This document shows, one piece after another, positions 4,557 through 30,000 of a stretch of 64,000 nt of DNA. Origin of the DNA: a virus; IMG/VR virus record IMGVR_UViG_3300035703_000078, positions 1 to 64,000 of that record, one strand, 5' to 3'. The notes beneath the pieces are model-generated. The model saw only the letters and a program-made list of their open reading frames with translations. It searched no databases and was not told the DNA's origin. Position numbers and translations under genes: made by a program. Every line of letters starts with the position of its first letter. Positions within the stretch are counted from its first letter, which is position 1.

Positions 4557-4886
4557 TTACGCCTTATGTTCTTCTGTTCTGCCATAATTTAAATCCTGAA
4601 TCTCAACAATCATTCGCTTTGGGATTTTATTAACTTGTGCTGTTTCATCTGGACCTACAGTATTGGTTACTGCAAAATGATCAGCATCCTCATGTAATAT
4701 AAAACCTACTGTAACCATGATAGGCAAGGGATCTTTAGCATAATTCAAAGCCTTGTTTCTATCAAGCCAGCCTTCACCACCAATAGTTACTGCATCAATC
4801 CAACTAATTAAAACTAACTGAGGGATTGTTGGATATGTAATATTATTAGGCAAAGAAATATTTAGATCCGAGTACTTCGGAAACAT
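4557..4886 (-). CDS. hypothetical protein, 109 aa
   Basis: The ATG at 4886 has GGAGAG upstream and lies inside the last 41 bases of the RNA polymerase gene in another frame. Its core, LISWIDAVTIGGEGWLDRN then LPIMVTVGFILHEDADHFAVT, resembles small phage proteins with a SWxDA...GW...VGF..hED pattern that are annotated only as hypothetical. It looks like a compact beta-rich protein. No active site can be assigned. Confidence 0.72.
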   Translation of the reverse strand: MFPKYSDLNISLPNNITYPTIPQLVLISWIDAVTIGGEGWLDRNKALNYAKDPLPIMVTVGFILHEDADHFAVTNTVGPDETAQVNKIPKRMIVEIQDLNYGRTEEHKA

Positions 4887-7284
4887 CGAACTCTCCGTCT
4901 GGTTTTGGACAGTCGGGAAGGAAGATTTTGTATTTCTTTTCAATTTCTTCTTTGAGGTTTTCAAGCTGATTCTCCTGATGAATTTTAACAAACTGTTCTC
5001 TTAGTATACTGTGCATCTCATCTACATCTGGTGCATATGTTCCAAAGGAATCATGCACCATTGAGAAAGCACACATACCTTGATTAAGCATTTCTCCAAT
5101 TGTCATAAACATATGAGCTGCATCTAGCGCATGGATAAAGTTTGGAGAAATCGCCAGATATTGTGCCTTGCCGTCGAGATCTTCCGTAACAGTTGAGAAT
5201 ACCAACTGCTGCCTGTTGAATAGTTCGGCATAGGAAACCCTTTCTAACACTTGATTGTACACATGATGTACTTCAAACCCGCTGGGAGTTGTCCATACAA
5301 ATGGTTTATTAATACTATTTAGAATGTCTGCAACAGATCGCAACCATTCCTTACCTTTGTTGGGTGACTCCATAGTTTCTCCCAAGCCAGCTTGAATAGC
5401 TCTGCTTAGTTCTACTACAGCACCACCCCTGGATTCCTTTGGAACCCAATCAACATGGCCTTCTTGCTTTACATACTTCTGCATACCATAGAATGTAAGT
5501 CCATAAGCATCACACATAGTAGGACGCTTGGCTACAGCCCTTGGTAGTTTATTATCCCAGTTAAGTAAGAATACCTGATACCAATTATTTTCTTGGTGTT
5601 GCTTCATGTATTCTGTACTGGCATCTGCAACAAACTGATACAAATCTTGAGGAGATTCTGAATCAATTAGGTTTGTAAGTACAGCAAGTTTCTTATTACG
5701 CATAATAGCAGACCAATGTTGACCACCATTATTTGCACCATCCATTTGAATATTGAGCTGTGTCATACCATCAGTACGAGCAAACTCAAAGATAGCAGCA
5801 AGACGTTGGAATGATTTATTCTTTTTCTTTGAGGCATCAATCCATTGCTTGTTTGAATAGGGATCAGATGCTATTGCAATAAGCATTTCAGCATTATCAT
5901 CTACCCATTTAACACGATCTTCAAATGGAATCTTATCCTGATCAAATAGGTTTGCTAGGTGTACCTTTAACCAGAACAAGCCACGCGGTGTCTGCTTGCG
6001 TGGTGAAGCAAAGTGAACAAGTCCACGATCAAAGTCTACACCTTGAGGTGATAGCAATTCACATACTGAATAAGCTCTACCTCTAAAGTCTAGTGTATAT
6101 GGCATGTAAAAGAAGTTCCAATCTAGCATCTTCTTAGCTAGCTGTAGTCTTACAATCATTCTACTTCTAGCTTGTTCTTCTTTATACCATTCACCCCATG
6201 CTTCATTAGATTCCTGCATCCACTTAGCTTGCTCTTCCTTTGTCCCTCCCTCCGGGTATGGCCTACTGAATGCATAGTCTTTAAAAGTAAATGCAGGTAG
6301 GTTAGCAAGCTTGTAGTCATTCTCAAACATAGTCTTCATTACATCATAGACTTGTTTGTTTACTGACCACTCAGTATGGCTGAGGGCATTTAGACCACGG
6401 AGAACTAGTTCACTTGGTCGTGAGTCCCAATCCTTTGGGTTTGCACCAACAGGATGATATCGCTTGATCATCTTCTTACGGATCCAGGGAGATAAGAAAC
6501 CACCATCTTCCTTTGCTGTGTGCTGGATAGGTGGACAGATCATTGGTCGATATACCAGACATGCTGCTTCAAGTAACTCATGTCGCTTGCTTAGTTCCTT
6601 GAGAATCCAAGGAGCAAAACAAACAAGCAATGACTTACGATTCTTTCCATTCCAATGTACCCTACTTACTAGGATATCACTGGATAGAGCAATGCGTAGC
6701 ATGTTATGTCCTAGGTCTTCCTTTTCCTTAGCCTTTAGCTTTGGAATAGATCCGACCTTCTTAGTAAATGCTTTGCACCGCTTGATTGTCCAGTTCTTAA
6801 TGAACTTGGATTGCTTTCTCCAATCTTCTGAGAACTTCTTCTTTGCTTGTTGATAAGATACAATGTTAATAACATCATCTGCAATTAACTTAGCTACTTG
6901 CTGTGCTACTGGTGCATTACTTGGAATGCCCATTGTATCATCGAAGCTTTGAATTGTATTCCTAGTTAGGAATAAGCGCATTACATTTCTAATAGTAATG
7001 TCTGCCATCTTAGCTGCACCAACACAAAGTAATGGTGCTAACCAATCAGGCGACTTACGGTTATTAGAACATGTGTCAATCCACTTTTGATAGAAAGGTG
7101 TAAGATGAATAACTGCGCTTTCAAGTAGTAATTGCTCAGGCTTTCCTTCATCGACAGCACGGTTATATTCCTTCCAGTATTTTTCAATACCATTATCTAG
7201 CAGATCTTCTTCAAATAACTTTTGATTAGTTACTCTAAATTCTTTTTGTTCTGGTGTTAGTTGATTCCAGGTAGTTAGTTTCAC
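4846..7284 (-). CDS. T7-type single-subunit DNA-directed RNA polymerase
   Basis: This 812-aa enzyme should transcribe the phage middle and late genes. The motifs are intact and in order: DFRGR (D399-R403), motif A MDGANNGGQH with catalytic D515, motif B RAVAKRPTMCDAYG with R582/K586/Y594, the NFIHALDAAHM block, and motif C VHDSFG with D745. Length and spacing fit the T7 family (883 aa in T7, from memory). It starts at GTG 7284, overlapping the stop of the zinc-ribbon gene as GTGA, so the two are coupled. It lies about 7.5 kb downstream of a second, divergent polymerase gene. Its promoter sequence cannot be fixed from this window. Confidence 0.97.
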   Translation of the reverse strand: MKLTTWNQLTPEQKEFRVTNQKLFEEDLLDNGIEKYWKEYNRAVDEGKPEQLLLESAVIHLTPFYQKWIDTCSNNRKSPDWLAPLLCVGAAKMADITIRNVMRLFLTRNTIQSFDDTMGIPSNAPVAQQVAKLIADDVINIVSYQQAKKKFSEDWRKQSKFIKNWTIKRCKAFTKKVGSIPKLKAKEKEDLGHNMLRIALSSDILVSRVHWNGKNRKSLLVCFAPWILKELSKRHELLEAACLVYRPMICPPIQHTAKEDGGFLSPWIRKKMIKRYHPVGANPKDWDSRPSELVLRGLNALSHTEWSVNKQVYDVMKTMFENDYKLANLPAFTFKDYAFSRPYPEGGTKEEQAKWMQESNEAWGEWYKEEQARSRMIVRLQLAKKMLDWNFFYMPYTLDFRGRAYSVCELLSPQGVDFDRGLVHFASPRKQTPRGLFWLKVHLANLFDQDKIPFEDRVKWVDDNAEMLIAIASDPYSNKQWIDASKKKNKSFQRLAAIFEFARTDGMTQLNIQMDGANNGGQHWSAIMRNKKLAVLTNLIDSESPQDLYQFVADASTEYMKQHQENNWYQVFLLNWDNKLPRAVAKRPTMCDAYGLTFYGMQKYVKQEGHVDWVPKESRGGAVVELSRAIQAGLGETMESPNKGKEWLRSVADILNSINKPFVWTTPSGFEVHHVYNQVLERVSYAELFNRQQLVFSTVTEDLDGKAQYLAISPNFIHALDAAHMFMTIGEMLNQGMCAFSMVHDSFGTYAPDVDEMHSILREQFVKIHQENQLENLKEEIEKKYKIFLPDCPKPDGEFDVSEVLGSKYFFA

Positions 7285-11220: not shown

Positions 11221-11614
11221 TGTTATCCTTTACTAGGGCTTCAAGAATTACTTCCATGATTTTATACTCTGACTCAGCAAAGTCCATACTTGCGTTCCTA
11301 AGAATCTCGGAACTTGTTCTGAAATCCAAAGCTCCAATCTCATATCTATAGCCATCAACAAATGGCTTAAAGATATTATCGGTATTTTCCCCTCTTTCCT
11401 GGACGTTCCAGAATTTTTCTGAGTAAGAATGGAATGTATCACACAAGGCACAAGTGCCTTGGTATACCCAAAGCAAACCATACTTATCTTCCTTCTTCAG
11501 AAGATAGCAATGGGTAGTTTGGTACTCTCCTTCATAGGTATGGGCAATAACCTTGATACCCAGTTCTTTACAAACTTCATTAATTACTTGGGTGTATGAA
11601 TTATACATTGCCAT
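11204..11614 (-). CDS. hypothetical protein, 136 aa
   Basis: This is the first gene of the left-hand operon, 80 bases after a strong terminator. The ribosome site AGGAG is well placed for the second ATG (MYNSYTQVINEVCKELG) and close for the first. The middle has YLLKKEDKYGLLWVYQGTCALCDTF, with a CxxC pair (CALC) that could bind metal alone or as a dimer. No family is recognised. Confidence 0.72.
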   Translation of the reverse strand: MAMYNSYTQVINEVCKELGIKVIAHTYEGEYQTTHCYLLKKEDKYGLLWVYQGTCALCDTFHSYSEKFWNVQERGENTDNIFKPFVDGYRYEIGALDFRTSSEILRNASMDFAESEYKIMEVILEALVKDNNGRNL

Positions 11615-11693
11615 ATACTCCTAGGTATACCTAGGTAATATTAATACTATAGTAATAATAATACCTAGGTTTAACCCCTAGCTATATACTAGG
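11615..11693 (-). promoter_or_regulatory. probable promoter region for the 11.6-0 kb operon
   Basis: This short AT-rich gap lies between a strong terminator and the first gene of a long run of genes, so a promoter is expected here. It holds TACTATAGTA (11645-11654), whose ACTATAG resembles the core of T7-type promoters. It also has several ACCTAGGT palindromes and a 5' AGGAG. No other copy of a full-length promoter motif could be matched, so which polymerase uses it is unknown. Confidence 0.35.
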
Positions 11694-11730
11694 TTAAAAG
11701 GGGTAGCCTAGGGATTAACCTAGGCTACCC
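11694..11730 (-). terminator. rho-independent terminator, 12-bp stem
   Basis: On the minus strand GGGTAGCCTAGG (11730-11719) and CCTAGGCTACCC (11712-11701) form a perfect 12-bp stem with a 6-nt loop, followed by CTTTTAA. It closes the GC-rich early block after the 88-aa gene. Confidence 0.9.
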
Positions 11731-11737
11731 AGTTCAT

Positions 11738-12004
11738 TCAGAACGGAAGAGGAACATTTTCCACAATGTTCACAGTCACACCCTCAACGAGGGGCGGGCG
11801 ATCCAGCTTGGGGCTGGGGCGGCTGATCTTGCCCTTCAGGGCAGGAGCCTTGGGATGGGCAGCATTTTCGTTTGCCCAAACAGAAACGGGAACCTTAACG
11901 GTTTCCTGACCAATCGTGATGGTCACATAACCGTTAAACTTGGGGGCCTGGGGGTTGGTGGTATTCACCACCCACAGGTCAACTCGACACTGATTCACTG
12001 TCAT
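11738..12004 (-). CDS. hypothetical protein, 88 aa
   Basis: The ATG at 12004 (MTVNQCRVDLWVVNTTNPQA) has GAGG ten bases upstream; a longer frame overlaps the 38-aa gene. It reads as a beta-rich N-terminal half (YVTITIGQETVKVPVSVW) and a Pro-rich basic C-terminal half (APALKGKISRPSPKLDRPP). It is the last gene before the 12-bp terminator and overlaps the 38-aa gene by 26 bases. The composition is GC-richer than the genes below 11.6 kb. The function is unknown. Confidence 0.7.
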   Translation of the reverse strand: MTVNQCRVDLWVVNTTNPQAPKFNGYVTITIGQETVKVPVSVWANENAAHPKAPALKGKISRPSPKLDRPPLVEGVTVNIVENVPLPF

Positions 12005-12095
12005 TGTCACTATCCTCAAAAGTTTCTTCGGGAGCCATACCATATTCAGACATCAGCTGCTCCCATTCGCTGACATCATTCCAATTATCAGGCAT
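11979..12095 (-). CDS. very small acidic protein, 38 aa
   Basis: The ATG at 12095 has a perfect AGGAGG site directly after the 3' hairpin of the structured RNA region. The peptide (MPDNWNDVSEWEQLMSEYGM, then an Asp/Glu/Ser-rich tail) is strongly acidic, like small phage inhibitors that mimic nucleic acid. That role is only a suggestion. Its last 26 bases overlap the next gene in another frame. Confidence 0.68.
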   Translation of the reverse strand: MPDNWNDVSEWEQLMSEYGMAPEETFEDSDNDSESVSS

Positions 12096-12105
12096 TTGTG
12101 CCTCC

Positions 12106-12681
12106 TGAGAAAGACAGTCTACAGGTTTCCCCATAGACTGCCTAGTAACCCTATTAGCTTGCTCTAGGCCAGGGTGGGTTAGGTCCTTAGCCTAGGTTAT
12201 TACTACCCCTTATTTACTTTATATCGGGGTCAGCCTACTATAGTAGGGTAACAGTTTGAACAAGCGGTCAGGACTGTTCACTTTACCTGACGTAGCCTAC
12301 CCAGCTTTGTGGGACTGTTAGTAAACCAAGACGCTACAGTTTGTTGCGCAACAAAACCGTAGCCGCACTATGCCTAATTTCTATTTATACTCGCATAGTC
12401 GAGTAATCTAATATATGCCTTAGTATAAACCTTAGATTAGCGGGTTTATACTTATGATCCTGTCTAGTTGGATCCCAGGCGTATTACCACAGGGTAGACA
12501 ACTCCCAGGGCGTTTACTGGATAGGTTGCGGCCTACCCAGTATCCTATTGCGGTCTACCGTCTACCGTCTGCAACGGCTCCGCCAATGAGTTTGTGAGTA
12601 GTTTCTAGTCATGCTCAGGACTACGAGTCGGGCAACCCGCATGCTGTCCTCTAGGACTATCCGGTTGCTTGCCCCGTTGTG
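12106..12681 (-). ncRNA. candidate large structured non-coding RNA (about 0.57 kb)
   Basis: No open frame covers this stretch, but it is packed with stems. Seen are a 15-bp stem with a one-base bulge (12333-12363), a 10-11 bp stem (12515-12542), and a perfect 14-bp palindrome (12234-12247). Three hairpins have loops that pair with sequence just downstream: 10+8 bp at 12404-12452, 6+6 bp at 12250-12291, 6+7 bp at 12367-12405. A 9-bp stem ends it, followed on the minus strand by TTTCTC (12106-12142). In three stems the only mismatch is A-C on the plus strand and G-U on the minus, so the RNA is probably minus-sense. It is not a tRNA. Size and pseudoknots recall phage GOLLD/ROOL RNAs, but no match is claimed. 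Confidence 0.6.
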
Positions 12682-13014
12682 TCATCGGTGTTGGCCGTAG
12701 TAGGCCTGTTCCTCCTGGCGGTAACACCTACACAGCTGATCAAGTTCTTCTACCCGCTTTTCGAGCTTCCTGATCTTTTCTGTAATCCCCACTGAACTGA
12801 TGGGGAACTGCTTGACCTTTAGATACTGCTTGGAGGATCTAAAGGTCATCCCAAGGTCGTTGTTGTGGTCAATGACCACCTGCTCTCCGGGCTCAAAATA
12901 CCGGTCGAACACAAACAACTTAAGTAGTTCCTCTCCCGAGAGTCCCTTTTCAACTACCAAGTACGGTCTAAGGGGAGCATCAGAATACTCCCCAATTTCG
13001 ATTAGAACTAACAT
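12682..13014 (-). CDS. hypothetical protein, 110 aa, C-terminal coiled coil
   Basis: The ATG at 13014 has AAAGGGG upstream. The N-terminal two thirds is mixed (LVLIEIGEYSDAPLRPYLVVEKG, then FEPGEQVVIDHNNDLGMTF), and the C-terminus is a helix of heptad type (ITEKIRKLEKRVEELDQLCRCY). It is the first gene upstream of the structured RNA region and 15 bases downstream of a small membrane protein gene. The function is unknown. Confidence 0.75.
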   Translation of the reverse strand: MLVLIEIGEYSDAPLRPYLVVEKGLSGEELLKLFVFDRYFEPGEQVVIDHNNDLGMTFRSSKQYLKVKQFPISSVGITEKIRKLEKRVEELDQLCRCYRQEEQAYYGQHR

Positions 13015-13029
13015 TTTATTCCCCTTTGA

Positions 13030-13209
13030 TCAGTGCGGATACCCAAACTTGCGAAGACAAGTGAGAACCAACGCCATGATTACTGGCATTGCCACCAAGC
13101 AAGTGGGAATGACAAGAAACGGTTCGTTTGTCACAGCAAGGGTGACAAGAAGGAACCCCGTCAAGAATGCCGATAAGTACGCTATCGGCCAGCACACCTG
13201 GTACTTCAT
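13030..13209 (-). CDS. small two-helix membrane protein, 59 aa
   Basis: The gene is read from ATG 13209 with AGAGAGG upstream. Two hydrophobic segments, about residues 7-27 and 30-52, are joined by a short polar turn (VTNEP), with a basic C-terminus (CLRKFGYPH). This hairpin topology is that of small phage membrane proteins such as holins or superinfection-exclusion factors. Its early position argues more for a membrane effector than for lysis, but neither is shown. Confidence 0.75.
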   Translation of the reverse strand: MKYQVCWPIAYLSAFLTGFLLVTLAVTNEPFLVIPTCLVAMPVIMALVLTCLRKFGYPH

Positions 13210-13484
13210 TTTTGACCTCTCTTTGGAAAGAAATGAGGTTTTAACTAGGTTATCCTCTACCTAGGCCAATAATCCAAACCGTAAGTACTTGCCTGTGACA
13301 TAGGCTTTCCGTAGCTGTATTCCCTGCAAGGCAATACAGCGGTTATTATGTGTGTCCCCCTATTTATATACCGCCTAGGGGAGGTTGCTTGCGGTTCTAT
13401 GGTGGTTGCAGCCACCGTTATACCCCGTTTGGGGTATTAGAAATCGCCACCCGTAGGTTTCCCCAGGGGTGGGAGGATCTGGAT
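13210..13484 (-). other. non-coding leader with several hairpins
   Basis: No gene is seen in this stretch. On the minus strand, read toward the membrane protein gene, it has ATACCCC/GGGGTAT (13422-13439), GGTGG/CCACC (about 13401-13416), a CCCCTA/TAGGGG pair (about 13355-13386) and a perfect 8-bp GCTGTATT/AATACAGC stem (13313-13339). The end next to the 88-aa gene resembles the local terminators (CCACCC/GGGTGG then ATTTC). It may be a structured 5' leader or a separate small RNA. Confidence 0.45.
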
Positions 13485-13751
13485 TTACTGTCCCAGTTCA
13501 GCCAGTTGGTTCTGGATTACCGTCGCCTTGGCCACAGCTGCGGAGATTGTGGCCTCCGTAGCCTTGGGATTCAAGATGACTCCTCCAACCAAGCCGTTGA
13601 GCTTGAGCTTGAGCCTGTCCTGTTCCGACAGGGCCTCGCGCCGGGCTTGGCGAGCTTCCGCCTTGGCGAAGTGCTCGCTCACGTTGGTGGTGATTCCGAG
13701 GGAAGCCAGAGCTTCCTGTCGGCTCTTCAACTCTGCATCAGACAAAGGCAT
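13485..13751 (-). CDS. hypothetical helical protein, 88 aa
   Basis: The ATG at 13751 (MPLSDAELKSRQEALASLGI) has AAGGAGG five bases upstream; a longer frame to 13841 has no ribosome site and a Trp/Cys-rich start. The protein is Ala/Glu/Lys-rich and almost wholly helical, with a possible coiled coil (AKAEARQARREALSEQDRLK). It is GC-rich, like its block. The function is unknown. Confidence 0.72.
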   Translation of the reverse strand: MPLSDAELKSRQEALASLGITTNVSEHFAKAEARQARREALSEQDRLKLKLNGLVGGVILNPKATEATISAAVAKATVIQNQLAELGQ

Positions 13752-14836: not shown

Positions 14837-16714
14837 TCAGCGGAAGATGTTCTTGGCAGCAGAAACAAACTGCTCTTCCGTCACGTCCTCAGTGATGTTG
14901 GGGAACAACTTTCCCAACTCTTCCTGAAGGACCTGACGGTAGTTGCCAACACACTCGCGGTACATATGACGAGTGTACACTTCCTGCACCGTCCTCAAGG
15001 CTGGACCAATGCGAACAGTGATCGCATCGTGCCGCGTGGTCGCCACCTGTCCATCCATCTCGTTGATGGTGTTAGTCAGGACATTGCCATCCTGACAAGT
15101 GGTAACTGCAACCAAGGACCCGTTCGGGGTATCAACCCGATTGGGTTCTCCGCTGTCTGACCACGGCACAACAGGCCCGTTGTCATCAGTGAAGCCCTTG
15201 GTGAACGGAGCCATACGCGGCTGGAAGCGCGTAGGCCATCCGTTCTTCTTGCACAGATCCAGCACCGAATGAGGCAGGGACACGGAGATCTGAGGCAGAT
15301 CCCGCATCTTGGTAGCCTCATCAACCGGGAACCATGAGAGCGCGGGTGCGATCTTGAAGTGAGGGAACGTAATCCCACCGTAGGTGTATGAGAACACCTC
15401 CTCCTTCGCCTTCTGGTGAGCCAACCACAGGTCACCAAACTTGAACAGCTTGCTGTCGTAGCGAAGGGCCGCGTTCACCGACATGGCAGAAACAGATGCT
15501 GCCAGTTCCTTGATCTTGGACTGGGGCCAGTCCTTGATCAGCTCCAGACCAGAGCGGAGCTTGTCAACCTTGATCACAGCATTTGCAAGGTTGAACGGAG
15601 CGAGGACAGAACCATCCTCGTCCTCCAGCTCTCCGCCCATCCCGTAGAGGAACACCTGGCCCAACACACGCCCGGTGTAGTTCGTCACGGTAAGGACATT
15701 CTTAGCCCACTCGCGTGAACGAACAAACGACTCAACCTCTGACGGCACGATGCCAAGGCACTCCGTAATGCCTTCGTAGACCTTCCGACCCATCATAACA
15801 TCCCGACAGGTGCGGCTCCCACCGATGGCCAAGGAGGTAGCCACCGGACCCTGTGCATGGGCATCATATCCAATATGCCCATGAGACACGCCGGAAGCAA
15901 CAGCGTCACTGATGTGGTAGCAGTTTTGGATGAACCGCAGCACGTTACGCTTCTTGCTTCCAACTGACTTCAGCTTGCCGATTGGGTTGGAAAACAAACC
16001 CAGAGCAAACTCGCGGTCAGTTGCCACGCGGAACATCTCTTCCCGCGTGACACCGTACTCCTTCTCGACCAGGGTAGACCACAGCTCAATGTCTTCCTTG
16101 GTGACAGGGTTGCCTTCTGCTAGCTGATAGAGAGCGCACACATCTCCATCGTACATCGTGGGCAGAACCAGACCGTCGCGGTTGTACGCATAGAAGCGAC
16201 CGCCACGACGATCTGACGAGTGCCAGAACTTGATCTCGCTTCCCGAAGGAAGCTTGGCCAGGTTCTCGATCTGCCACTTGGCAAGGTACTCCATCAGGAA
16301 CACAGGTTCAATCACGGTGTTTGAACGACCGTTGTGAACCACCTCATAGGGCTTCTTGCCCAGCAGACAGGCAGCATCAATGGCCAGGTTGAACATGCGC
16401 TCATCGCGCACCCAGGTAACCTTGTCCATTGCGGCCATGCCACTTGCGTGGCTAGACCAGCTGCGACACTCAGGCATGAGCTTCAGGATGTCCTCAGCCT
16501 GCCGCCGAAGCGTCCAAGCCTTGAACACCTGAGATCCACCGCGAACAACCTCGCAGTGCATCTTGTAAGCTCCCGTTGACAGCATCTTACCAATGATGCC
16601 GCCAACAACTGAGAACGATGCCGGGTCGATCCCCGCAAGGACCGCATCCGGCTGAATGAGTGTCACCAGGTCGTGAACAGTGTACTCACCCTTACCCAAG
16701 AATGGAATGTTCAT
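14837..16714 (-). CDS. second, divergent single-subunit RNA polymerase (625 aa)
   Basis: This protein aligns by eye with the T7 RNA polymerase core. A DRRGGRFYAY block (R173) stands for DWRGRVY and is followed by an LAEGNPVTKEDIELW stretch like the T7 LAKGKPIGKE. Motif A GYDAHAQGPVATSLAI has D284, motif B VTNYTGRVLGQVFLYGMGGE has Y357/G358, and motif C TRHDAITVRIG has D563. Spacings R173-D284 (111) and D284-D563 (279) are close to T7's 112 and 275. The motif B lysine of T7 is Arg (R349) and the upstream Arg is Asn (N345). It is smaller than T7-type enzymes and could be an early polymerase of N4 RNAP-II-like role, or an inactive relative. The gene is GC-rich and is a single-gene unit. Confidence 0.75.
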   Translation of the reverse strand: MNIPFLGKGEYTVHDLVTLIQPDAVLAGIDPASFSVVGGIIGKMLSTGAYKMHCEVVRGGSQVFKAWTLRRQAEDILKLMPECRSWSSHASGMAAMDKVTWVRDERMFNLAIDAACLLGKKPYEVVHNGRSNTVIEPVFLMEYLAKWQIENLAKLPSGSEIKFWHSSDRRGGRFYAYNRDGLVLPTMYDGDVCALYQLAEGNPVTKEDIELWSTLVEKEYGVTREEMFRVATDREFALGLFSNPIGKLKSVGSKKRNVLRFIQNCYHISDAVASGVSHGHIGYDAHAQGPVATSLAIGGSRTCRDVMMGRKVYEGITECLGIVPSEVESFVRSREWAKNVLTVTNYTGRVLGQVFLYGMGGELEDEDGSVLAPFNLANAVIKVDKLRSGLELIKDWPQSKIKELAASVSAMSVNAALRYDSKLFKFGDLWLAHQKAKEEVFSYTYGGITFPHFKIAPALSWFPVDEATKMRDLPQISVSLPHSVLDLCKKNGWPTRFQPRMAPFTKGFTDDNGPVVPWSDSGEPNRVDTPNGSLVAVTTCQDGNVLTNTINEMDGQVATTRHDAITVRIGPALRTVQEVYTRHMYRECVGNYRQVLQEELGKLFPNITEDVTEEQFVSAAKNIFR

Positions 16715-18051: not shown

Positions 18052-21000
18052 TTACTTCAGTGAGTCTGGAGCTTTAATTGGTGTTGTTGCTTCTTTTTGT
18101 AGAGATGAACTTGTGCTTGGCTTAGGTCCAACCATGACTTCGCTGGTAGAGGTTGTTTCTACTGGCTTCTCTGGTACTGGAGTTTCTGGAGCTGTTAGAC
18201 CTAGGTTTGGCATTTGTTTCTTTTTAAACTGATGCATGTATTGCTGAAGTTTATTATTCATTTCAGTTTGATACAATGACTTAAGTATAGCCTGTGCTAT
18301 ATTGTTTGGCGTAGGTAGTTGCATGTTTTCGTATTCAGCATAAGCTGTAGCAAATGCTGTATTCATTGGTCTACCTTCGCTATTGCGTCTTCCAGAATCA
18401 AAGGAACCCATTGTTTGTTTCTTTGCTTCTGTAGCTAGGCCCTGATTAATTAAAGTTTTAAACCAAGCTTGATTTAGAATTGGTAGTAAATATAATCCAC
18501 CATTGTAAGCTGACTTAATTCTTTCTTCATCTGACTGTGCATTGATAAAGGTATTGGTATTGGTTGCTAGGTTCTTTAGTAATCGTACCATAGCAGTAAC
18601 ACCTAGCGGTGCAATCTCTGGTTCTAATCCCTTGTTACCAGCAACTGTATCTGCCAAGAACAAGGAAGTATCCAACAAGAAGTTGCCCTGTAAAGTAAAC
18701 ATGGGGTTTCTTACTGCTGCTTTAGCAATAAGTTTAATTGTCTTTTCAGATGGTTCACCCCTTAGTAATCTTTCAATTTCGTCCCCAGCAAGGAACCCGC
18801 TGGCTGCTGCAAGCATAGTTTGATACATGATATCGGTAATGGTGTATACCAACATGAGTCCAGCCATCTTTGATGTAGACATTCTGGCACTGTTTCGTAG
18901 TAACATCTGACCAGCAAATAGAATTGAATATGATCTATACAAGCTTAAGAACTTGCTTAATGGGGAGTCATCTGTTACACCATCAAAAGCTGAAGAAGAT
19001 ATTAATGACTGTTTAACTGCCAAGTCTTGGAACTTTTCAATAGCTCCTACAGCTTGTATTAGCATTTGTTTATTTACGGTAACACCATCTACATTAACGC
19101 TAAAGTCTTTATCAAGATCTAGGATTTTGTCCATATACTGAGAAATACTAATTGGTCCTGATTGCTTTAAGAACTTAAGGCTTTCGATAACCCCAACCTC
19201 AAACATACCAGCAGCTTTCATTCGTAGGATTGTTTCAGGTGAAGATAGCTTTCTAAAACCGTTGTTCTTTAGCTTCTTCATCAGAGTTACATATCCTCTA
19301 TAGTTACCAGATTCCAATTCACCATCAATAAGCATACGTCTTACTTCTTCTAGGTTGTTAGTATTTAGTTGTCTATTGAGTTGTACTAATGCAGTTTTAG
19401 CCAAAGCTGTTCTTGCAGAGATAGATGTTGACATATTTAGTGCTTGGTTAAAGCTTAAGAATCTACTAGCCAGTCTTCCGGTTTTTCTAGTAAAGTCTAC
19501 TTCACCATATAACTTTTCCCATGACTCAACAAAGTTACTGTTAGTATCCCAGAGTATTTCTGCAAAGTCGGCAAAGTCACCACGAACCTGGGTTTGTTTC
19601 CATCCATCACTAAATGCACCAAAGCTTAATCTAAGTACATCTCCAATGTATCTGCCATAGAAACCAAGTACACCACCAGCACCGCCCAGCATCATAGCAC
19701 CAACAGCTGCTGCTGAAGAGTCTACAAGAATACCAGCGGCAATCTGGTTACCACCCCAGATTAGGTGGGCAGCTTGTGTTGTAAACTTAATTGCATTCTT
19801 ACCAATGGCATCACCAGATACGGCAGAACGCATGTTCCACATATACTGATACTTGTGCTCCAATACTGTTAAGGCATCACTAAGTAACTTGACTTCTGCT
19901 TGTGATAGGGGTTTAGCTCTTACGCCTTGTTCGGTTCTTTCAAACTGACCCTGTGATATATGAGATCCAGTTGGTCTATTGGCTCCATCAACATATGCCT
20001 TTAGAATCCTAATTAGTTTAAGAACATCATACCCCTGTACCCCAGTCATCTTGTAAATCAATGAACTTGATACAGCTTGCTGACCTAGGCCAGATCCAAT
20101 TGATTTAATAATAGATCTTATGTCTCTGGAGAAGCCACTACGGATAGATCTCATTTCTTCTACGCCTAGTACTTCAGTAAAGTTATCACCAAAGATATCA
20201 TCTACTGTTAGGTTAATGTCATCCTTATAAGTAATAGCAGCAGAAGAACCAATAGTATTTAAGAAGTCTATTGCTAGTAGTTCTGGAATTGTATTTGTAG
20301 ATGCACTAAAGATATTTCTTTCTTCTTTGATCTTAATTGGGAATCTCTCAGAACGCATAGCTTGAAGCTTTGCTTTCATATTAGGTGGATTGCCAATATC
20401 AGAAGTAATGGTATTCTTTATTGCATTCTGGATTATCTTTACCTGTTCTGGGGTAATACCGGAAGAATGGGCTGTAAGCAATCCAGTTACAGTAGCTGTT
20501 CTACTGGTGCTTGCTTCTAGTAAAGCCTTGTAGCCTTTCTTTAAATCTTTCAATGCAACCGAGTTTCCAACAGTTGCACCCGATCTAATCAGATCCTTTT
20601 TAGTTGCTAGATCAACAGATCCTTCTTTAACTTGAGCAGCATAAGAAAGAATAGAGTTAAATATAATAGCCTCTACTGAATTTGGATTAGTAGATCCACT
20701 TGCGTTTCTTTCAATAAAACTAATAAACTCTTGTTCTGAAGACATGTCTGATGAGTTAGATGTCTTAAGTGTTGGTAACCCGGAAGTCAACATAAATGTA
20801 ACCGGATGTACTCTATCAAGATCTTGTAACTGTGAAAGTTGTTTTGCTCTGATTAAAGAAGATACAGATTGAATAAACTGCGTTCTTCTTGTTTGATAAC
20901 CAGCTTTATTCTTTTCTTCTCTAAACTGATCAATATCTAACTTAAATGCAAGGTAGCTATCATGGAATGGTCTTGATCTATCTTTTAGATTAGCATCTGT

Positions 21001-24000
21001 AATTATTCCATGTAATAGTTCTGAAGACTTACGATATGTATCTCCAAGTCTACGGATAGCAGCTTGTTCCTTTTCATTGAATGAAGGATCAATCTTACCG
21101 CTGGCTAGGTAACTAAATGACTCTAGGATAATATCTCCAGATCTATTAGTTGCGCCTGGTACTGGGATTGCTGAAGAAAACTCTGAAACAATTTGGTTAT
21201 AAACAGAAGATACTTGATTAACCAATAGATTTACTTGGTATTGGTTTTGTTTAATACCATCCAATCCACCGTTACCTTCAAAGTATGAATCTACTGTTTG
21301 TGCTTCGGCATCAATTAAGTGCGCTAATGATACAATAATACCAAAGGCAGAGTTATAGGTTTGGCCAGATTGATTACCAGTTACAAGATAAACAGAAGTA
21401 GAAATCTTCTGTAGTGTTTGGATTAATCTATTTCTTGCATGTCCATCGTCTTGCATAGACACAGTGCCTGAGAATAGATTCATCATTTGTCTAGCTAGAT
21501 AAGCAGCTGTACCTGGGCTATCGACACGCTTGCCACGAATTTCTGACAGCCTTCTAATAATATGATCTGCCAGTACAATCTCTTCTTCTGTTGTTTCTGC
21601 ATAATCAAACTCACGACCTACAACATCATTTCTGTTGCGTAGCCTAGTTAATGTATCATAGTATAGTTCATCAGAGATACCTAAGTGGTCTACATTGTTC
21701 TGCCACTTATCTCTAATAGAGTCTAGTTCTCGTTTAACTCTAGCATATTCTGCCGAGTTTGGATCCAGTGTACTAAGCTCTTGAGTTAATCTTCTGTACT
21801 GATTCTGATTTCTTTCTTGCTCTTCAAGATAAGTAGTACGCTCAGCCAATGTTGAACCGGGATTATAATATACATCCGCATTTGAGATAATAAAACTTTC
21901 TTCAAGTACATCATCATATACAGCTTTGTCTTCCATTCTAAGATCTGAAGTAGCATCAAAGAATCCGTTAAAGACTCTGTTTACTTTGTCGGATACACCA
22001 ACAAATCTACTACCAGTCATTTCATCTAAGAATGTAACTAGATTATTTACAAAGTATTCAATGGATTTAAAGGTTCTCTTCCACCAAGAATTAACCTTAC
22101 TAGCTATATTGTTTTCTTCCTCTATAGTCTTTAGCTCAACACGATCTTTACCCATTGCTCTTGTAATAAGCATTTGGCTTCCCCACATAACCAAAGCTTC
22201 TTCCAAGTTTTGTTGATAGTAAGAAACTAGTTTAGTGATTTCATTTCTAGTTAGCACCCCACCAGCAAAAGCATTAGTAACCATTTTTTCTATTGCTTCT
22301 TGCCCGGTGTCTGTCATTAAGCTTTCAATTGCTTCTTCATAACCAATCCTATCTCTAATCTTAGAATAGTTTAAAGCAATATGAGATAGCTCATGTGCTA
22401 TTACTTCAATAGCTTGTTCAGTTGTTTTGCCAGCAACTGCTGCTTTAATTGTATCTGGAGACTTGGCAAAGACAATATTAAATACATCGTTAACCTTACG
22501 GATTTTAGCTAATCTATTTCCTTCAACACTATCTATGCTAATAGTCAAGTGACCTTCAAGTTCTGGATGCTTATGTAAAATAAATCCAACCATAGCTCTA
22601 TACATCTGTTCTGTCAATGCATCCAACCCTAAAGACTTAATTTGATTATTTAATTGTTCACCTGAATTTACAAATGTAGACAAGAATATTGTTTCATTGC
22701 CAAACTTATTGGCTGATTCTTTTGGTCCAGTTCCATAGAATGAAAGACTTAATTGAGAATCTTCTTTTAAGTTTTTAATAGAGTGAGAAACAGCTAGTCT
22801 AACTTTATTCTGTTGTTCTGCATTTAGTTTTTTACCTTTTTCTTCCTGATTAGCAATAAACCGAACAGTAGCATCTAGTTCATTTAGTTGATCAGTTGGA
22901 ATATCTAACTGCTGTAAGAAAGCTCTAACTGGTGTATAAAACTCATTAGACTGTGGATCTGTAATGCTTCTAACTACATTTAGAATAATTTGGATATCAC
23001 TAGTTAAAGCATCAACCTTAGCTTTTGAAATACCCTCTCTACTAAACGTGTAATCAACAAGAGCTCTAATAGCATTGAGTTCCATTGTTGGCTTTGATAT
23101 AGCCAATGAAATAATTGGAAGTAGTTGTCTAATCTCTTGAGCATTATTATTTAAAGTACTGTTAATAGTATTTAAAGCAGACTTAAGATTGTTATTTTCA
23201 GCAATTGCTATAGCTCTTTGAAGTGGCATAAGCAAAGCTAGTTCATATGCTTTTACAGTAAATGGTGTAGATCGACTATCTAAATACTTAGTAGAAATTA
23301 GATTAAAGTTTTCTTTAGCTAAGTATCTAATAGAGTCTAAGATTTCATACTGAACATTATATCGAGCATCATACATACCACCATCTAAAGTATACAGTGG
23401 AGATAGTCCAGCATGAAGAGCCGAGAAAACTGTAGCTTCATCGGCTTTTAATTCTCTAGCCCCATTGTAATATTCTAATGTTCTTTGCAGATTGCCACGC
23501 TCTAGGTTTGATTTCTTTTGACCAATTGATTTATTAGTAGCATAAGCAAGTTCAGCCTGGTTTAGTATAACAGAGTTTCGTAGCGCAAGTAACAATGAGT
23601 TTAACATTTCTGGTGTGAACGCATACTTTGTTTTACTATCATTAACATTTACTTGTGGAACTGGACCAATGGCTGTTTGAATATCCATTGTATTAGGTGT
23701 TGGTGTATCTACAACAAGTTCAGCTGTATTTTGATACTCATTATAAAGTACATATAGTCCTACGGATCTTATGTCAGCTTCTGTAAACTCTGGTCTACTT
23801 AGAATTTCTGGTAGCAATGTAACTGCTGCGTTTGCTGGAATTGATTCCGGTATTACCTGACCAGCAGGATCAAACTCGACACCAGCAATATTTCTAGCCT
23901 TGACAAGTTCAGTGGCTACTTGTTTTACTTTTGTTAGGTTGTAAAGAATAAATACAAGGTTAACAGCATCCATAGCTTGTACGGTTACTGGTAGTGTTCT

Positions 24001-27000
24001 TGTGTTTTCGTCAATAGGTTGCGAGTCGGGTCCTGCTACTCTAGTTCTTGATGAAACAGTAAGACCATACTTAAGACTTCCTAATTGTTCTGATGCATCA
24101 GACAACATTGTAAGAAGGTTGTAATATGTGGGACTTCCACGCATGCCCTTAAACATCTTTGGATTAAACCCACCAAAGTAATTAAAGTCTAGCTGTGTTA
24201 CATCCTTATCCATTGTATTGTGTTGATACTCAATGATATCAAACATGGATGTTAAGAACTTTGATACACCTAAGTTATATTCAGATACTAAAGTATTTTC
24301 ATCTGCATTATAAACCTTACCAAGTTTTCTTAGTAGTGGGTAACCACCTCGGACATGAGCCATTCTAATGAAATGAACAGCAGCCCAGTTTTCTCTACCT
24401 CGCGGTAAGAGATGCATTAATCCATTTTGCTTTGCAAACCTATAAAGTCTGCTTTGAATTCTAGCTTGCTCAACGGCAAGTTTAGTTGATACATCTGTTA
24501 GATTAGTAAGTAAACCCAGTGACATAAGTTCTCTTGGAACATATGGTAAAGATTCTGGGTTTACTGTATGAGTGTAACCTATAGCTTGTTCTGGAATAAT
24601 ATCTGTTACAGAACTTGGTGCTTTATTCTTCTTACTTGCCCTTACCCAGTTTTCATTTTCTTTATCAATACGGCGTTCAATAGCCAATTCTGCTAAAGCG
24701 TAAATAGGTAGATCTGTAATATCAATATCGGCAGTCTTGGGTCTAAATGCAAATATACCCATCTTTTGATTAGACTCTTCAAATGCTTTACTGGTATCCC
24801 CAATAACTCGGGATGGAGAAGCAAGGTATCTTAATCCCTGCTCTAGTAGCAAGCCGCGCTTACGGGCTTCTTTAATCCAGTTCTTGGCGTTAGGTCTTGC
24901 ACCACCGGGTGTAACAACGGATTCAATCTGAGCCTCTGCCTGGGCTGTTCTTAGGGTTTCTATACTACGCCGTCTGGCATAGAATTCTCTTTCCTTTTTA
25001 CTAATGCGCGACCAATCTTCTAGGAATCTTTCAGGTGTCTCTAAAGTTTTATCATTATAGTCATTAGCCATATACTCAGTAGCCAACCGTAATTCATATT
25101 GCTGTAGGACTAATTGAGTAATGTATCTACGGGCTTCTTCTGGATTTTCTCTTGCTAGTCTAGCAAAAGAAAACTCGTCAATTTCCCATAAAGCTGTAGT
25201 GTTTACATCGGCTGGATCAAAAGGAGCTGGGGTAGCAACTTGAGAATAAGAAGGACCCTGGTATGAAATACCAGATGGTGTTGTGTACATACGACCACCA
25301 GCCAAGTCTCTGGCTAAACTCTGGAAGAAAAGATAGTTCCCAGAATTACCAAGATAGTCATTTACATTAACACCAAACTCTTCTGTAGCTTCTCTAATAG
25401 CTTCTTCTCTAATCCTAAGTGGTGTTCTATTAGCAGTGTTTATAGCAGCCAATAGCGGTAAGTCTTTCCAAGCCTGGGGATCTCTACCCATAATCTCAGC
25501 TAGCTTAATATATTCTCCACGGGTTGTAAGAGTACCACCCTTAGTTCTTACATACTCTCGACCCGCGTTAATTCGGTCAGCCCACAATTTAGCAAGACGT
25601 TGTTTCTTATTATTAATAGCTGACTCTAAAGATCCAAACTGCATAATATCACTAGGTTTTACCAACATTCTTGCAGCTGCATCAATACGAAGATTGATAA
25701 GATTAGTTAGTGTTGTATCATCAATGATACCGCGACCAAACTCTGTAGATCTTCCCATTTCTTCAAGAACTGCATGATGTCTTTGTATACCATCTTTGTA
25801 GAAAAGTTTTTTGTTCCACTCATCTAGTTGTTGTTTTAGTTTAGTTCTACCTTCGACCGAAATATTTATTGTTTCGTCTATTAACTTAATTAATCCAATA
25901 ACGCCGCTAAACTCAGCATCCTTTAACAAAAAATTAATATCAGCATTGTTAATAACAATAGATGGGAATGTTTCTTTAAACTCTGGATCTTGAGTTTTTT
26001 CAAATAGAGCTTGTGAAATACTAGGAATACCGCCCTGATACAAACGAGGTAATACAGCAGCTTTAAAGAAATCTCTAAAGGTTCTCTTAGATCCTGTTTC
26101 ATCCATGCTGTTTAAAATAGCATTCCACTTTTCTAATGAATCAAACTTAGCTTGTTCATCTTTAGTTAGCGGTGCTGTTTGTTTTCTTTCAGATAGTTTA
26201 ACATACTGCTCTGCAATATTCTTTTGGACTTGAAGAGATACTTGAGTATAAAAGTCATCCTTGTTAGCATCTACAGTTGACCACCATTCAGAAAGATTTA
26301 GATTTTTTATAAGGTTTGCTACACCTCTAGTACCTACGTCGTTTGGAATATTGTAAGCCAACATTAACATTAACATGTGGTGAATACCGTTAAAGTCAAA
26401 GTCAAAGTAATCTATATTCTTTAATTGCAGTTTACCAGCTTGAATACCCTTAGCTGTTTCTTCAAGTGATGTTTGAATAGCACCATCAGTAATACCATAT
26501 GTTTGATACCAACCCAACTGAGCTACAAGTTGACCGTTGATAATTGATCGTGCAGACCAAGCACCAGGTGATGCTTCTAGTCTGGAGAATTTTAAACTCT
26601 TACCATCATTATCTACAACTACTTTTGTTCTTAAGAATACAGAGTCATGCACTACAGCAACACCAATTGCTGGTAAGTCTAGTAAGGTTTCTAGAGTTCT
26701 ATCTAGTGTATCTTCAATTGTTGGAAGCTCATTAAATAACTGTCTGTTATTTACCGTAGGGGTAATATCGGGAATTATTGTTGTTGACTTAGCTAATACA
26801 GAAACTCTACGCATATACTCAGCCCCACGAATGTCGGCTAGTTTCTTTCGTAGTTCTTCTTCTGACAATCCTTTGTATCTATCACCGTTTAGAATATGGT
26901 TTATTCTTTGCCGTAAAGCCCAGTCATTGTATACTTCTTCATATTGCTTAAGAGATATTGGAGCAAACATAGATACATTTTTTCTATGTGGTTGTCTAAC

Positions 27001-30000
27001 TTTTATAGACTCAGATAGATTCTTTGCATTGTTTTCCAGGTCATTCATTGTAGATAGTGGAGTAACAAATGCTTGCTCTTCAATAAATCTAGAATCCATA
27101 ATACCATCTCGCCTACCCATTGCAATCTGAGCTATAGCATATCCTACATTCCAAGCAGGAGCATAATCAGTATTACCATTACCAAAGTCTGTTATAGCTT
27201 TTGCTTTAACTGATGGCAAGATTACTTCGTTAATAAAAGCTTTAATGTAGTCTGCTTGGGTTTCTGATCCAGTCTTTTCTCTAAATCCATACTCAACAAT
27301 CTTTTCATTCATTCGAGAAACTATCTGATCGGCTGGTACTTTATCCCCTGCCATATCTAAGTAGAACTGATTAAATGCTTCAATTACTGCTGCTTCATAC
27401 TGAGACTCAGCTGTTGTACTGGTAGTTGCTTCAATATATTTTGGTTCGCCTTCAATGATTGAAAGAATAAACTTTGGTTCTCCATCAGAACCAAGTAAAG
27501 CTTTCTTTGCTTCAATACCAGCTTGTCTATGTGTTCTCATTAACTTCATCTGAGTAACAAGAACTTCTTGTTCTTTTTTAGTAAGTCTTTCGGCTTCTTT
27601 AATTAAAGTTTCTCCAACTACAGCTGTATCTGGATCTGCTCTTAAAGATAAAGACATATGCAATAGCAACTGATCTCTAACTGCCTCTGTATTAAATAGC
27701 AGTCTAGATGTTCTTTCAGCATTATTAGATTCACCAACAAAGTTATTTATTGCTGGTTGTACTCCAGGTGCATTGTACTCTGAAAAAAATCCATTAAAGT
27801 TACTATTTGTGTTACTGTGGAAAATAGCAAGTTGCCACGTTTGAAGTGGATTACTTAAACTTAAATTTACAGTACTCTTATCTACATTGTTTACATTAAC
27901 AGTAAGATTTCGTGATGGGTTTGATTTTAGGTTTTCAATAATCTCAAATACCAAATCAGAGTCGTTTCTAGAATACTCTAGTGCCTTTAAAGTTTCTTCT
28001 TCTGTTTTTGCTGCAAGTAAAAGATCTACTACACTTGTGCCAGTTACGCCTTTAATCTTTCCTCGACCAAGTGTTGCTGTTGCAAGGTTGTCTAAATTAA
28101 CAGTAGCTCCATATTGCATCTTAATCCAAGCGTACATATCGTATGATCTTAAAGCAACCCGAGCGGCTAGATTTGATGATTCTTCTGTACCGATAGATTT
28201 AGCAATACGAGCTAAATCAAATCCAACATTATTAAATCCAGCAACCTTCCATCCCATATTTTGCATTAATTCTAAAGAGCGTAAGAATCGCAGTAGATCT
28301 TCTTTTGAATAAGCAGTAAAGTTACCAATAGAACCCTTAGCTGGATTTGAAACAAGCTGTTCAATAGAAGGATCAAGTCTTTCTTCTGTTGCTGAGTGTC
28401 TAATAGAAATCATAAAGATCTCATCACCCCTTGTTTCAATATCAAATGAAATAACTCTATCCCAGTTTCTTGCGTACTCATCTGGGTTTGCTACTTCAGG
28501 TAAACCCTTAATTGCCCTTGGATCCATACCTAAATTAGCAAAAGCTTTTTCTAATGCTGGCGGTACAGGTAAGCTAGATAAAGCCGGAGCTGTTAGTCGT
28601 GCTACAGATGTTGCAGTTACAACAGCACTACTAAAATAGATGTCTGGATTTAGTAGGTGTAACTGTGGTCCTAGGGCTGCTAAAACCATATCTCTTGACA
28701 TGTGCTCTGAGAACTGTGGTAGTTTTCTCAGTGTTTCTACACGCTCTAAGGCTTGCTTTAACATTACATAAAGCTTCTTAAAATCAGTGCCTTCTTTAAA
28801 CTCTTTAATCTTTTGTTCTCTAGTACTAAGAGTTTCTTCCTTAGCTTTGCTGGCTGTTCTAGCCTTTGGCATAACAGTATCGTTATTTACCTGGTCTTCG
28901 TTTTCAATATCCATGTTATTGCTAGCTGCTTTTAGATTATCTGCTAACATTTGATCTTCTGGTGAAAACTCAAAACCTAAAGCAATGCCATTTGAAAAAG
29001 CCTGATCTATTGCTAGATTAGCTAATGTATTAAAGATAGAAGATAGTGTATTGTTATCTAGTTCAGTGCTTCCCTTTAAGGACTTTGCTTTTTCTTTTGG
29101 ATTAACTTTATTGTGGGTATCAATAATTAATTGATCAATAGAAACACCCAAGTCTCCAATTACTGCTTTTAGTTCTGCTACAGTAACTTTGCCGCCCTTT
29201 TCTTTTCTAATAGCATCCAACAAAGCCTTACTTGTATTAAGCACCTGAATACCCTGTTTGGCTAATTCAAACAATTGCTTATCATGTTCTAGGGTATTAC
29301 GAGAATCAATTAGTTCATTTAGAGCAAGGCGGTATGTAGATGAGTTTTTATCAATCTCAGAACTAAGTTCTTTAACTGCTTCATATAGAGATATTTGACC
29401 AGCTGAGTCTGCTTTCTGTTGCTTTCTAAATGCCTTACTTAATAAGATTTCATTTGTTTTTGTGGTAGTTTCTTTGACATTCTCATCAATCTTTTTTTGA
29501 ATTTCTTTTTTCTTTTCTGGGTCTGTTTCTCTTTGAAGCTCACCAACTAAAGCAAATCTAGTATTGTTTAGTTGTTTAATTGTCTCATTGTTTGAAGCCT
29601 CAAATTCATAAGACGCATTAACAGCATTAAGTAAAGCTTTAGTTTTTTCTAGTCTACCTTCAAACTCTATGTTCCTAATAAATCTACCAGCATTTCTATT
29701 CTGATTTTCGGTTGCTTCTATTTTTCTAATTAATCTATTAAGTGTTCTTGCTTCTTTAATTTTACCTTCACTAAGGAACTTACTCTCTAGCTTTCTTAGT
29801 TTTTTCTTTAGTTCTAGAGTTTCCTTTGTTTTGAATCCCTCGGCAATAAGTACTTTACCTTCCATATAAGCTTGCCACTTAGACCATAAAAAAGTAAATT
29901 CAGACAGATCATCATTAGTAACTTTAGTTATATCACCCCTAGCTCTTCTAAACTTTGAAATTAGTTTATTAAGCTTATCAATATCTGAAGTTGTAAATAA

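What the first reader, a model, noticed from the sequence alone, without database searches (positions are those of the whole stretch)
12106..12681. Candidate large minus-strand structured RNA with three pseudoknots
About 0.57 kb without a gene folds on paper into many stems. Three hairpins have loops that pair with bases just downstream: GTCAGG/CCTGAC with AACAGT to ACTGTT (12250-12291), TACTCG/CGAGTA with loop ACTATG to CATAGT (12367-12405), and AGTATAAACC/GGTTTATACT with loop TAATCTAA to TTAGATTA (12404-12452). Three independent stems (12113-12142, 12333-12363, 12515-12542) each have one A-C mismatch on the plus strand that is a G-U pair on the minus strand. That is the trace expected if the transcribed strand is under selection. 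A terminal 9-bp stem with TTTCTC would end it right before the next ribosome site. It may be a new phage RNA or a relative of the large ornate phage RNAs (GOLLD, ROOL).
Basis: partly seen in the sequence, partly recalled or inferred. Interest (0 to 1): 0.88.

Follow-up and report, generated by a model that had tools for sequence, protein, structure and literature searches.

The report
Ribozyme-cut pseudoknot RNA in a phage
A stretch of phage DNA without genes encodes a known self-cutting RNA (a Pistol ribozyme) joined to a knot-rich RNA that related phages also carry and that the RNA family library does not list, which suggests that these phages use the ribozyme to trim a structured RNA out of a longer transcript.

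Summary
The structure is real and on the minus strand, but it is not a GOLLD/ROOL-like RNA. The middle pseudoknot (12404-12366) is a Pistol self-cleaving ribozyme: Rfam RF02679, 43 bits, gathering score 34.5. P1, the six-pair pseudoknot, P3 and the G-U cleavage step are present; P2 is weak. Predicted cleavage is between G12332 and U12331. Upstream, a second pseudoknot abuts P1.

Searching viral contigs for the 3' end alone returned 9 contigs; 9 of 9 have a Pistol upstream. A covariance model of the 3' RNA from seven phages finds three further phages strongly (63-66 bits) and the window moderately (40 bits, largely from the terminator). Stems and, between groups, loop pairings covary. No other RNA family reaches its Rfam 15 threshold there, and my paper searches found no description.

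Best reading: the ribozyme cuts the transcript to release a ~220-nt, 5'-OH, double-pseudoknot RNA ending at a terminator. Activity, existence of the RNA in infected cells and function are untested.

The parts
12516..12541 (-). hairpin ACUGGGUAGG/CCUAUCCAGU of the 5' domain; one G-U pair
   Evidence: sequence; the same place in L005 carries AUUACCUAGG/CCUAGGUAAU (10 of 10 pairs) and in L002 AUUACUUAAG/CCUAGGUAAU (9 of 10) (alignment, pairing read by eye)
12404..12452 (-). PK0: H-type pseudoknot abutting Pistol P1 (stem AGUAUAAACC/GGUUUAUACU; loop UAAUCUAA pairs UUAGAUUA; its last base, 12404, is also the first of P1)
   Evidence: loop pairing of the same kind with other letters in L001, L002, L009, L010, L012, L032, L035, L037 (picked by eye; L010 7 of 9 pairs). 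Not found in L008, ambiguous in L007, none seen in L034 and L039
12333..12404 (-). Pistol self-cleaving ribozyme: P1 12404-12400/12393-12389, pseudoknot 12399-12394/12372-12367, linker 12388-12373, GCG 12366-12364, P3 12363-12333
   Evidence: Rfam RF02679, 43 bits, gathering score 34.5; anatomy table. Rfam's own fit stops at 12352 because it skips the long P3
12331..12332 (-). predicted Pistol cleavage dinucleotide G12332|U12331 between P3 and P2
   Evidence: position by analogy with the Pistol fold (PMC4604425); not tested
12246..12302 (-). helix H1 GGGUA/UACCC enclosing PK2
   Evidence: same place AGCCGG/UCGGUU in group A and (A/G)CCGU/ACGG(U/C) in group B
12257..12291 (-). PK2: stem GUCAGG/CCUGAC, loop UGAACA pairs UGUUCA
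   Evidence: matching place UGAAAC/GUUUCA with covarying stems in groups A and B
12146..12195 (-).
   Evidence: the main matching part of the CM hit besides the terminator
12113..12142 (-). terminal hairpin followed by UUUCUC, terminator-like
   Evidence: GUCUUU at this place in all 12 aligned members (three of the 12 were found through a GTCTTTT pattern)
12109..12331 (-). predicted mature 3' RNA (~220 nt, 5'-OH)
   Evidence: CM built from seven other phages hits 12262-12111, 40.4 bits

Best explanation
A Pistol ribozyme sits inside a long minus-strand non-coding stretch of the phage's transcript. After folding (P1, six-pair pseudoknot, long P3, short P2) it is expected to cut between G12332 and U12331, leaving a 2',3'-cyclic phosphate on the upstream RNA and a 5'-OH on the downstream RNA. 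The downstream product, about 220 nt, is a discrete structured RNA: a helix enclosing one H-type pseudoknot, a second H-type pseudoknot, and a terminator-like hairpin that defines its 3' end. The most likely role is a ribozyme-processed, nuclease-resistant phage RNA (5'-OH and knots at one end, hairpin at the other); whether it then acts in trans or only keeps the ends of the neighbouring mRNAs stable is open. Shown: Pistol homology, conserved architecture, covariation, linkage of the two parts. Inferred: cleavage, a separate RNA in cells, stability, function.
For: Rfam Pistol above its gathering score in the window, in 8 of 8 contigs found by the exact P1/pseudoknot pattern, in 18 of 19 newly fetched loci of a relaxed pattern (L013 not) and in 7 of 8 loci (L038 not). 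Purine-32, G33, G40, C41 and G42, named as catalytic or structural in PMC6154101 (passages), fall on G, G, G, C, G in the window (my mapping). A search for the 3' end only (no Pistol letters) returned 9 contigs, and 9 of 9 carry a Pistol upstream; six of the nine were already known from the Pistol pattern. CM R1 from seven B phages: group A (three phages, not in the model) 63-66 bits, window 40.4, L001 38.5. Group B alignment: 12 pairs changed on both sides against 3.3 in shuffles (0 of 500), 95.2% paired against 21-42% when slid. Strands pair with their own partner at 92-100% and with other members' partners at 35-59%. L002 and the window hold this RNA at the same locus between orthologous genes. 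In L034 and L039 the Pistol starts within 7 nt after the stop codon of an open frame, so the conserved unit is Pistol plus downstream RNA.
Against: The window's P2 (GAAA/CUUG) has an A-C mismatch next to the cleavage step and only two Watson-Crick pairs; several relatives also have poor P2, so cleavage may be slow or lost. Without the terminator the window's CM score is only 11.5 bits (R1) or 4.1 bits (R2), and terminator-only stretches in L038 and L039 reach 23-30 bits. The whole-record search with R1 reported 10 of 19 records, seven of which built the model, and reported none for the window's own record or L001. Within group B the PK2 loop pairing (6 pairs) never varies and 4 of 5 PK3 loop pairs never vary, so their covariation rests on comparison between groups; one of five measures, further pair types, is not outstanding (33 of 500 shuffles). 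Helices were picked by eye. No expression data.
Confidence: 0.6

Rival explanations
1. mRNA processing and insulation only: the Pistol, pseudoknots and hairpin are cis elements that cut a polycistronic phage transcript and protect its ends, as RNase III sites do in T7 (recalled). No free RNA with a job of its own is made.
For: In L023 and L028 Pistols stand in series before successive genes; of the nine tested there, eight have an open frame of 60 aa or more starting 18-38 nt after the Pistol hit. Stem + UUUCU hairpins recur between genes of the window. A start codon (of a 38-aa frame) lies 17 nt after the hairpin, with AGGAGG before it.
Against: In groups A, B and C the stretch after the Pistol is a domain of about 170-220 nt with two pseudoknots, far more than an end cap needs.
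Confidence: 0.3
2. One large ornate RNA of ~0.57 kb or more (GOLLD/ROOL-like in kind), not cut or cut and held together by its fold.
For: The 5' domain is also shared by groups C and A with hairpins that keep pairing. In L001 about 0.9 kb (-445 to +479 around the Pistol) holds only a 45-aa frame on the transcribed strand (an antisense frame of 185 aa overlaps its start).
Against: It contains a self-cleaving ribozyme. No GOLLD or ROOL match. L034 and L039 have the ribozyme and 3' RNA without the 5' part.
Confidence: 0.12
3. A decayed Pistol kept as a non-cutting structural pseudoknot.
For: Weak P2 in the window, L001 and some relatives.
Against: P3, the two-base junction (GU in the window) and the purine-32/G40/G42 positions are kept. 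Relatives have local P2 pairs: L037 GGGU/ACCC (four), L032 GGGG/CCCG (three), L033 GAGG/CCGA (two).
Confidence: 0.15
4. A DNA element such as an origin or packaging site whose inverted repeats look like RNA stems.
For: The plus strand has as many pseudoknot-like repeats.
Against: G-U pairs on minus where plus has A-C; minus folds better (z -4.17 against -2.36); Rfam ribozyme on the minus strand; pair changes include G-U steps.
Confidence: 0.03

Closest known systems
Pistol ribozyme (Rfam RF02679)
   Same: P1, six-pair pseudoknot between the P1 loop and the strand before P3, AUAAAUA linker, GCG, P3, G-U junction; phage setting as described in PMC4604425 (parts 1-2 of 4 read).
   Different: Long 31-nt P3, weak P2, an extra H-type pseudoknot abutting P1, and a conserved double-pseudoknot RNA downstream that is not part of the family.
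GOLLD and ROOL RNAs
   Same: Large, pseudoknot-rich non-coding RNAs of phages (PMC12286853, passages).
   Different: No match to their Rfam 15 models; contains a ribozyme; shorter predicted product; no tRNA island beside it in the window (only one tRNA, at 1925-1998).
Theta ribozymes beside phage tRNAs
   Same: Small phage ribozyme placed to trim the end of a structured RNA (PMC10879173, abstract and outline).
   Different: HDV-like fold and tRNA partner there; Pistol fold and a different, pseudoknotted RNA here.

Membership tests
Pistol ribozyme | Rfam covariance model above gathering score | tested here: met
   43 bits against 34.5
Pistol ribozyme | P1 and six-base-pair pseudoknot | tested here: met
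   5-bp P1, loop ACUAUG with CAUAGU 6/6
Pistol ribozyme | P3 directly after GCG | tested here: met
   31-nt hairpin 12363-12333
Pistol ribozyme | two-nucleotide junction (GU) between P3 and P2 | tested here: met
   G12332 U12331
Pistol ribozyme | P2 stem | tested here: inconclusive
   GAAA/CUUG: two A-U pairs, an A-C and a G-G
Pistol ribozyme | self-cleavage | not testable with these tools
   needs in vitro transcription
GOLLD / ROOL | match to the Rfam models | tested here: not met
   none at gathering threshold in the window, none at E up to 10 in 11600-13500
GOLLD / ROOL | homo-oligomeric nanocage | not testable with these tools
   needs cryo-EM
Pistol-linked double-pseudoknot RNA (named here; groups A, B, C) | PK2, PK3 and terminal hairpin with GUCUUU, in this order, downstream of a Pistol | tested here: met
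   anatomy
Pistol-linked double-pseudoknot RNA (named here; groups A, B, C) | match to the covariance model of the 3' RNA | tested here: inconclusive
   window 40.4 bits with R1 and 31.5 with R2, but 11.5 and 4.1 bits without the terminator and no report

The most novel reading that the evidence does not exclude
A new class of phage non-coding RNA whose 5' end is made by its own Pistol ribozyme: a roughly 170-220-nt double-pseudoknot RNA, released from the transcript and acting in trans during infection (for example by binding host ribosomes, RNases or a defence protein), with the upstream pseudoknots as an independently folding partner.
Probability: 0.3. Interest if true: 0.78.

Novelty: new variant of a known kind. 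Interest (0 to 1): 0.62.

Why it matters
What small self-cleaving ribozymes do in phages is mostly unknown. Here a Pistol is tied to one particular RNA: in seven phages from which the model was built, in three more that the model finds strongly, and in the window and L001 by order of parts, position and a weaker match. That gives a concrete and testable job: making the 5' end of a structured phage RNA. The 3' RNA matches no Rfam 15 family and would be a new one.

Tried and rejected
1) Distal-P2 idea: I first thought the invariant GUCUUU at the 3' end was the Pistol's own cleavage site and P2 strand, so that the whole 220-nt domain was a giant P3. Rejected: L032 (GGGG/CCCG), L033 (GAGG/CCGA) and L037 (GGGU/ACCC) have local P2 pairing, and GUCUUU belongs to a terminator-like hairpin of a kind that recurs in these phages.

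2) The motif GGTATATAAATAG (13375 and downstream) as a phage promoter: set aside, not excluded, because its flanks can form a pseudoknot whose letters change together (read by eye).

3) Host genomes: the 3'-end pattern gave 31 stretches in genome contigs; none of the 31 has the PK2 loop pair upstream, so I take them as chance.

4) Blastn in the phage collection found nothing for the window or L005; L012 hit only 45 bases, in the Pistol of Cellulosimicrobium phage DS1, whose downstream RNA looks different.

5) AlphaFold of the 625-aa neighbour failed (pLDDT 31), so its resemblance to single-subunit RNA polymerases rests on motifs read by eye. 6) search for related loci with alignment A1 gave only the L002 contig again. 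7) Weak Rfam matches (RAGATH-22, mir-754, IMES-4 over 12084-12149, mir-624, STnc400) are all far below their gathering scores; I treat them as chance.

Rows dropped: one search left out L003, L004, L006, L011 (duplicates) and L018, L022, L024, L027, L030 (near-identical to shown ones). One search gives each helix only for some members. PK0 was not found in L008 and is ambiguous in L007. In one search the hairpin scan lists 47 hits, many of them inside genes or on the plus strand; I cite only intergenic minus-strand ones.

Full report
What is there. The window belongs to a 68,287-base virus record whose long reading frames are mostly on the minus strand. Between an ORF ending at 12682 and a start codon at 12095 lies about 0.58 kb without a real gene. 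The minus strand folds better than its shuffles (z = -4.17, 0 of 100) and better than the plus strand (z = -2.36, 2 of 100). An automatic scan finds 7 H-type pseudoknots where shuffles give 2.2 +/- 0.9; the plus strand scores 7 as well, so the scan does not choose the strand. Folded without pseudoknots, the 200 nt after the Rfam hit are only at z = -1.6.

A Pistol ribozyme. Scanning the window against all Rfam 15 families gave two matches: a tRNA at 1925-1998 and a Pistol ribozyme at 12404-12352, 43 bits with a gathering score of 34.5 (alignment). Rfam's fit squeezes P3 into six bases; the fuller reading is a 31-nt P3 hairpin at 12363-12333, then GU, then the P2 strand. Purine-32, G33, G40, C41 and G42, named for activity or the active-site triple in PMC6154101 (passages), fall on G, G, G, C, G here (my mapping). 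P2 is the weak point: GAAA faces CUUG, with an A-C pair next to the cleavage step. Cleavage is therefore likely by family, not shown.

Relatives. Blastn found no relative of 11700-13300 in 50,697 phage records, but the exact P1/loop pattern found 8 viral contigs, 8 of 8 over the Pistol score. A relaxed pattern found 27, of which 19 were new; 18 of these 19 have a Pistol. A pattern of the 3' end alone (TACATGGGAC, 22 bases, GTCTTTT) found 9 contigs: L005, L006, L007, L008, L010 and L012, already known, and the new L032, L033, L034; 9 of 9 have a Pistol upstream. The same pattern in bacterial and archaeal genomes gave 31 stretches, 0 of 31 with the PK2 loop pair upstream. I sort the members into group C (window, L001), group A (L002, L005, L008) and group B (L007, L010, L012, L032, L033, L034, L039). 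L002 lies at the same locus as the window: its 625-aa gene upstream is 64% identical, and the gene downstream and the small gene upstream are also related.

Anatomy of the downstream RNA. From the cut to the 3' end the order is the same in all three groups: helix H1 closing PK2, then PK3, then a hairpin with GUCUUU. Loops and stems differ but pair: the PK2 loop is UGAACA/UGUUCA in the window, AUGAAAC/GUUUCAU in A and UUGAAAC/GUUUCAA in B; PK3 is UAACCC/GGGUUA, AGGUCU/AGACCU and AACCC/GGGUU. In the seven-member B alignment the structure (45 pairs) is 95.2% paired, with 12 pairs changed on both sides (3.3 expected from shuffles), and falls to 21-42% when partners are slid by 1-3 columns. In the same call the PK2 loop pairing never varies, 4 of 5 PK3 loop pairs never vary, and the count of further pair types is not outstanding (33 of 500 shuffles reach it), so within B the covariation lies in the stems. 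Across groups, strands pair with their own partner in 92-100% of positions and with other members' partners in 35-59%; these helices were chosen by eye, which inflates the first figure. A covariance model from B alone finds A at 63-66 bits and the window and L001 at 40.4 and 38.5 bits. The window's score leans on the terminator: without it 11.5 bits remain (E = 0.00018 for 255 bases), and 4.1 bits with model R2 from A and B (31.5 with the terminator). Terminator-only stretches in L038 and L039 reach 23-30 bits. The whole-record search with R1 reported 10 of 19 records, seven of them the source of the model, and none for the window's own record or L001; I do not know why it passed over the place that one search scored. 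So A and B form one family firmly; the window joins by position, order of parts and a moderate score.

The 3' hairpin is best read as a terminator: hairpins of 10-13 pairs (one mismatch allowed) followed by UUUCU or a similar tail recur on the minus strand between genes of the window (17596-17567, 17391-17362, 16846-16821, 14822-14796, 14187-14163, 11731-11700, whose 47 hits also include many inside genes). I had considered GUCUUU as the Pistol's own distal P2 strand and rejected it when L032, L033 and L037 showed local P2 pairing.

The upstream part. PK0 abuts P1 in several members with different letters and the same kind of pairing, but L034 and L039 have the Pistol within 7 nt of a stop codon, and I found none in L008. 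The 5' domain (12590-12453) is shared by groups C and A with hairpins that keep pairing. In the window, about 660 bases with the ORF 12682-13014 interrupt the non-coding stretch that is about 0.9 kb in L001.

Mechanism. Shown: a Pistol by homology, linked to one conserved structured RNA. In 14 of 15 records searched there is exactly one Pistol; L028's record has eight. Inferred: cleavage at G12332|U12331, a 5'-OH RNA of about 220 nt ending at the hairpin near 12109. A 5'-OH and knots should resist enzymes that prefer 5'-monophosphate ends (general knowledge, recalled). Whether the RNA acts in trans or merely protects mRNA ends is undecided; L023 and L028, where Pistols stand in series before genes, show that mRNA processing is a real alternative.

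Novelty. Pistol ribozymes in phages are known (PMC4604425). Searches for Pistol with phage, RAGATH, structured RNA, viral genomes and metagenomes, for ribozymes with ROOL and pseudoknots, and for pseudoknots in phage intergenic regions listed no paper whose title or abstract start describes this downstream RNA; the listings were cut at 20 of 226 and 15 of 34 papers, and most subscription journals and all preprints lie outside that library. No Rfam family other than Pistol and tRNA reaches its gathering score in the window.

Noticed in passing
window 13395-13353 (-); L007, L010, L012, L035-L039: A second pseudoknot element, ACCGCAAGCAACC..UAGGCGGUAUAUAAAUAG..GGAC. By eye, loop and 3' strand change together (CCCC/GGGG, CCUG/CAGG, CCCA/UGGG; stem AUCCC/GGGAU in L002). 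Eight viral contigs by pattern, seven of them with a Pistol in the fetched stretch, L038 not. No Rfam match at gathering score.
   Followed up: partly
window 11613-11731 (-): Chain of CCTAGG-rich hairpins before the 136-aa gene; an 86-base part (11613-11696) is 94% identical to L002 although the 625-aa protein is 64% identical.
   Followed up: no
window 13438-13478 (-): 41 bases 97.6% identical to L002, containing a hairpin with a GGGGAAACCU apex similar to the one at 12142-12113.
   Followed up: no
L028 (8 Pistols in the record), L023 (6 Pistols in the fetched stretch): Pistol ribozymes in series; of the nine tested, eight stand 18-38 nt before an open frame of 60 aa or more, as if gene after gene were cut out of the transcript.
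   Followed up: partly
L014, L017, L018, L024, L026: Pistol 165-196 nt upstream of a tRNA; four of these five stretches are tRNA arrays with a tmRNA (not L018's).
   Followed up: no
L012:687 +, L032 (three places), L033:770 -, L071:1908 +: Tiny recurrent pseudoknot: NNN-CUGRGCAN-complement..AAACU-GCYC; stem and loop pairs both vary.
   Followed up: partly
window 14837-16714 (-): 625-aa protein without Pfam or PHROG match. Its C-terminus resembles that of single-subunit RNA polymerases by eye only; L005, L008 and L010 carry a PF00940 protein upstream of the RNA. The window has a separate PF00940 RNA polymerase at 4846-7284.
   Followed up: partly
window 18052-30159 (-): Single ORF of 4,035 aa, unusually large for a phage record of this size.
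   Followed up: no
L071 (Cellulosimicrobium phage DS1, MW590223): A named phage with a Pistol (66 bits) starting at a stop codon and about 0.5 kb without an annotated gene after it.
   Followed up: partly
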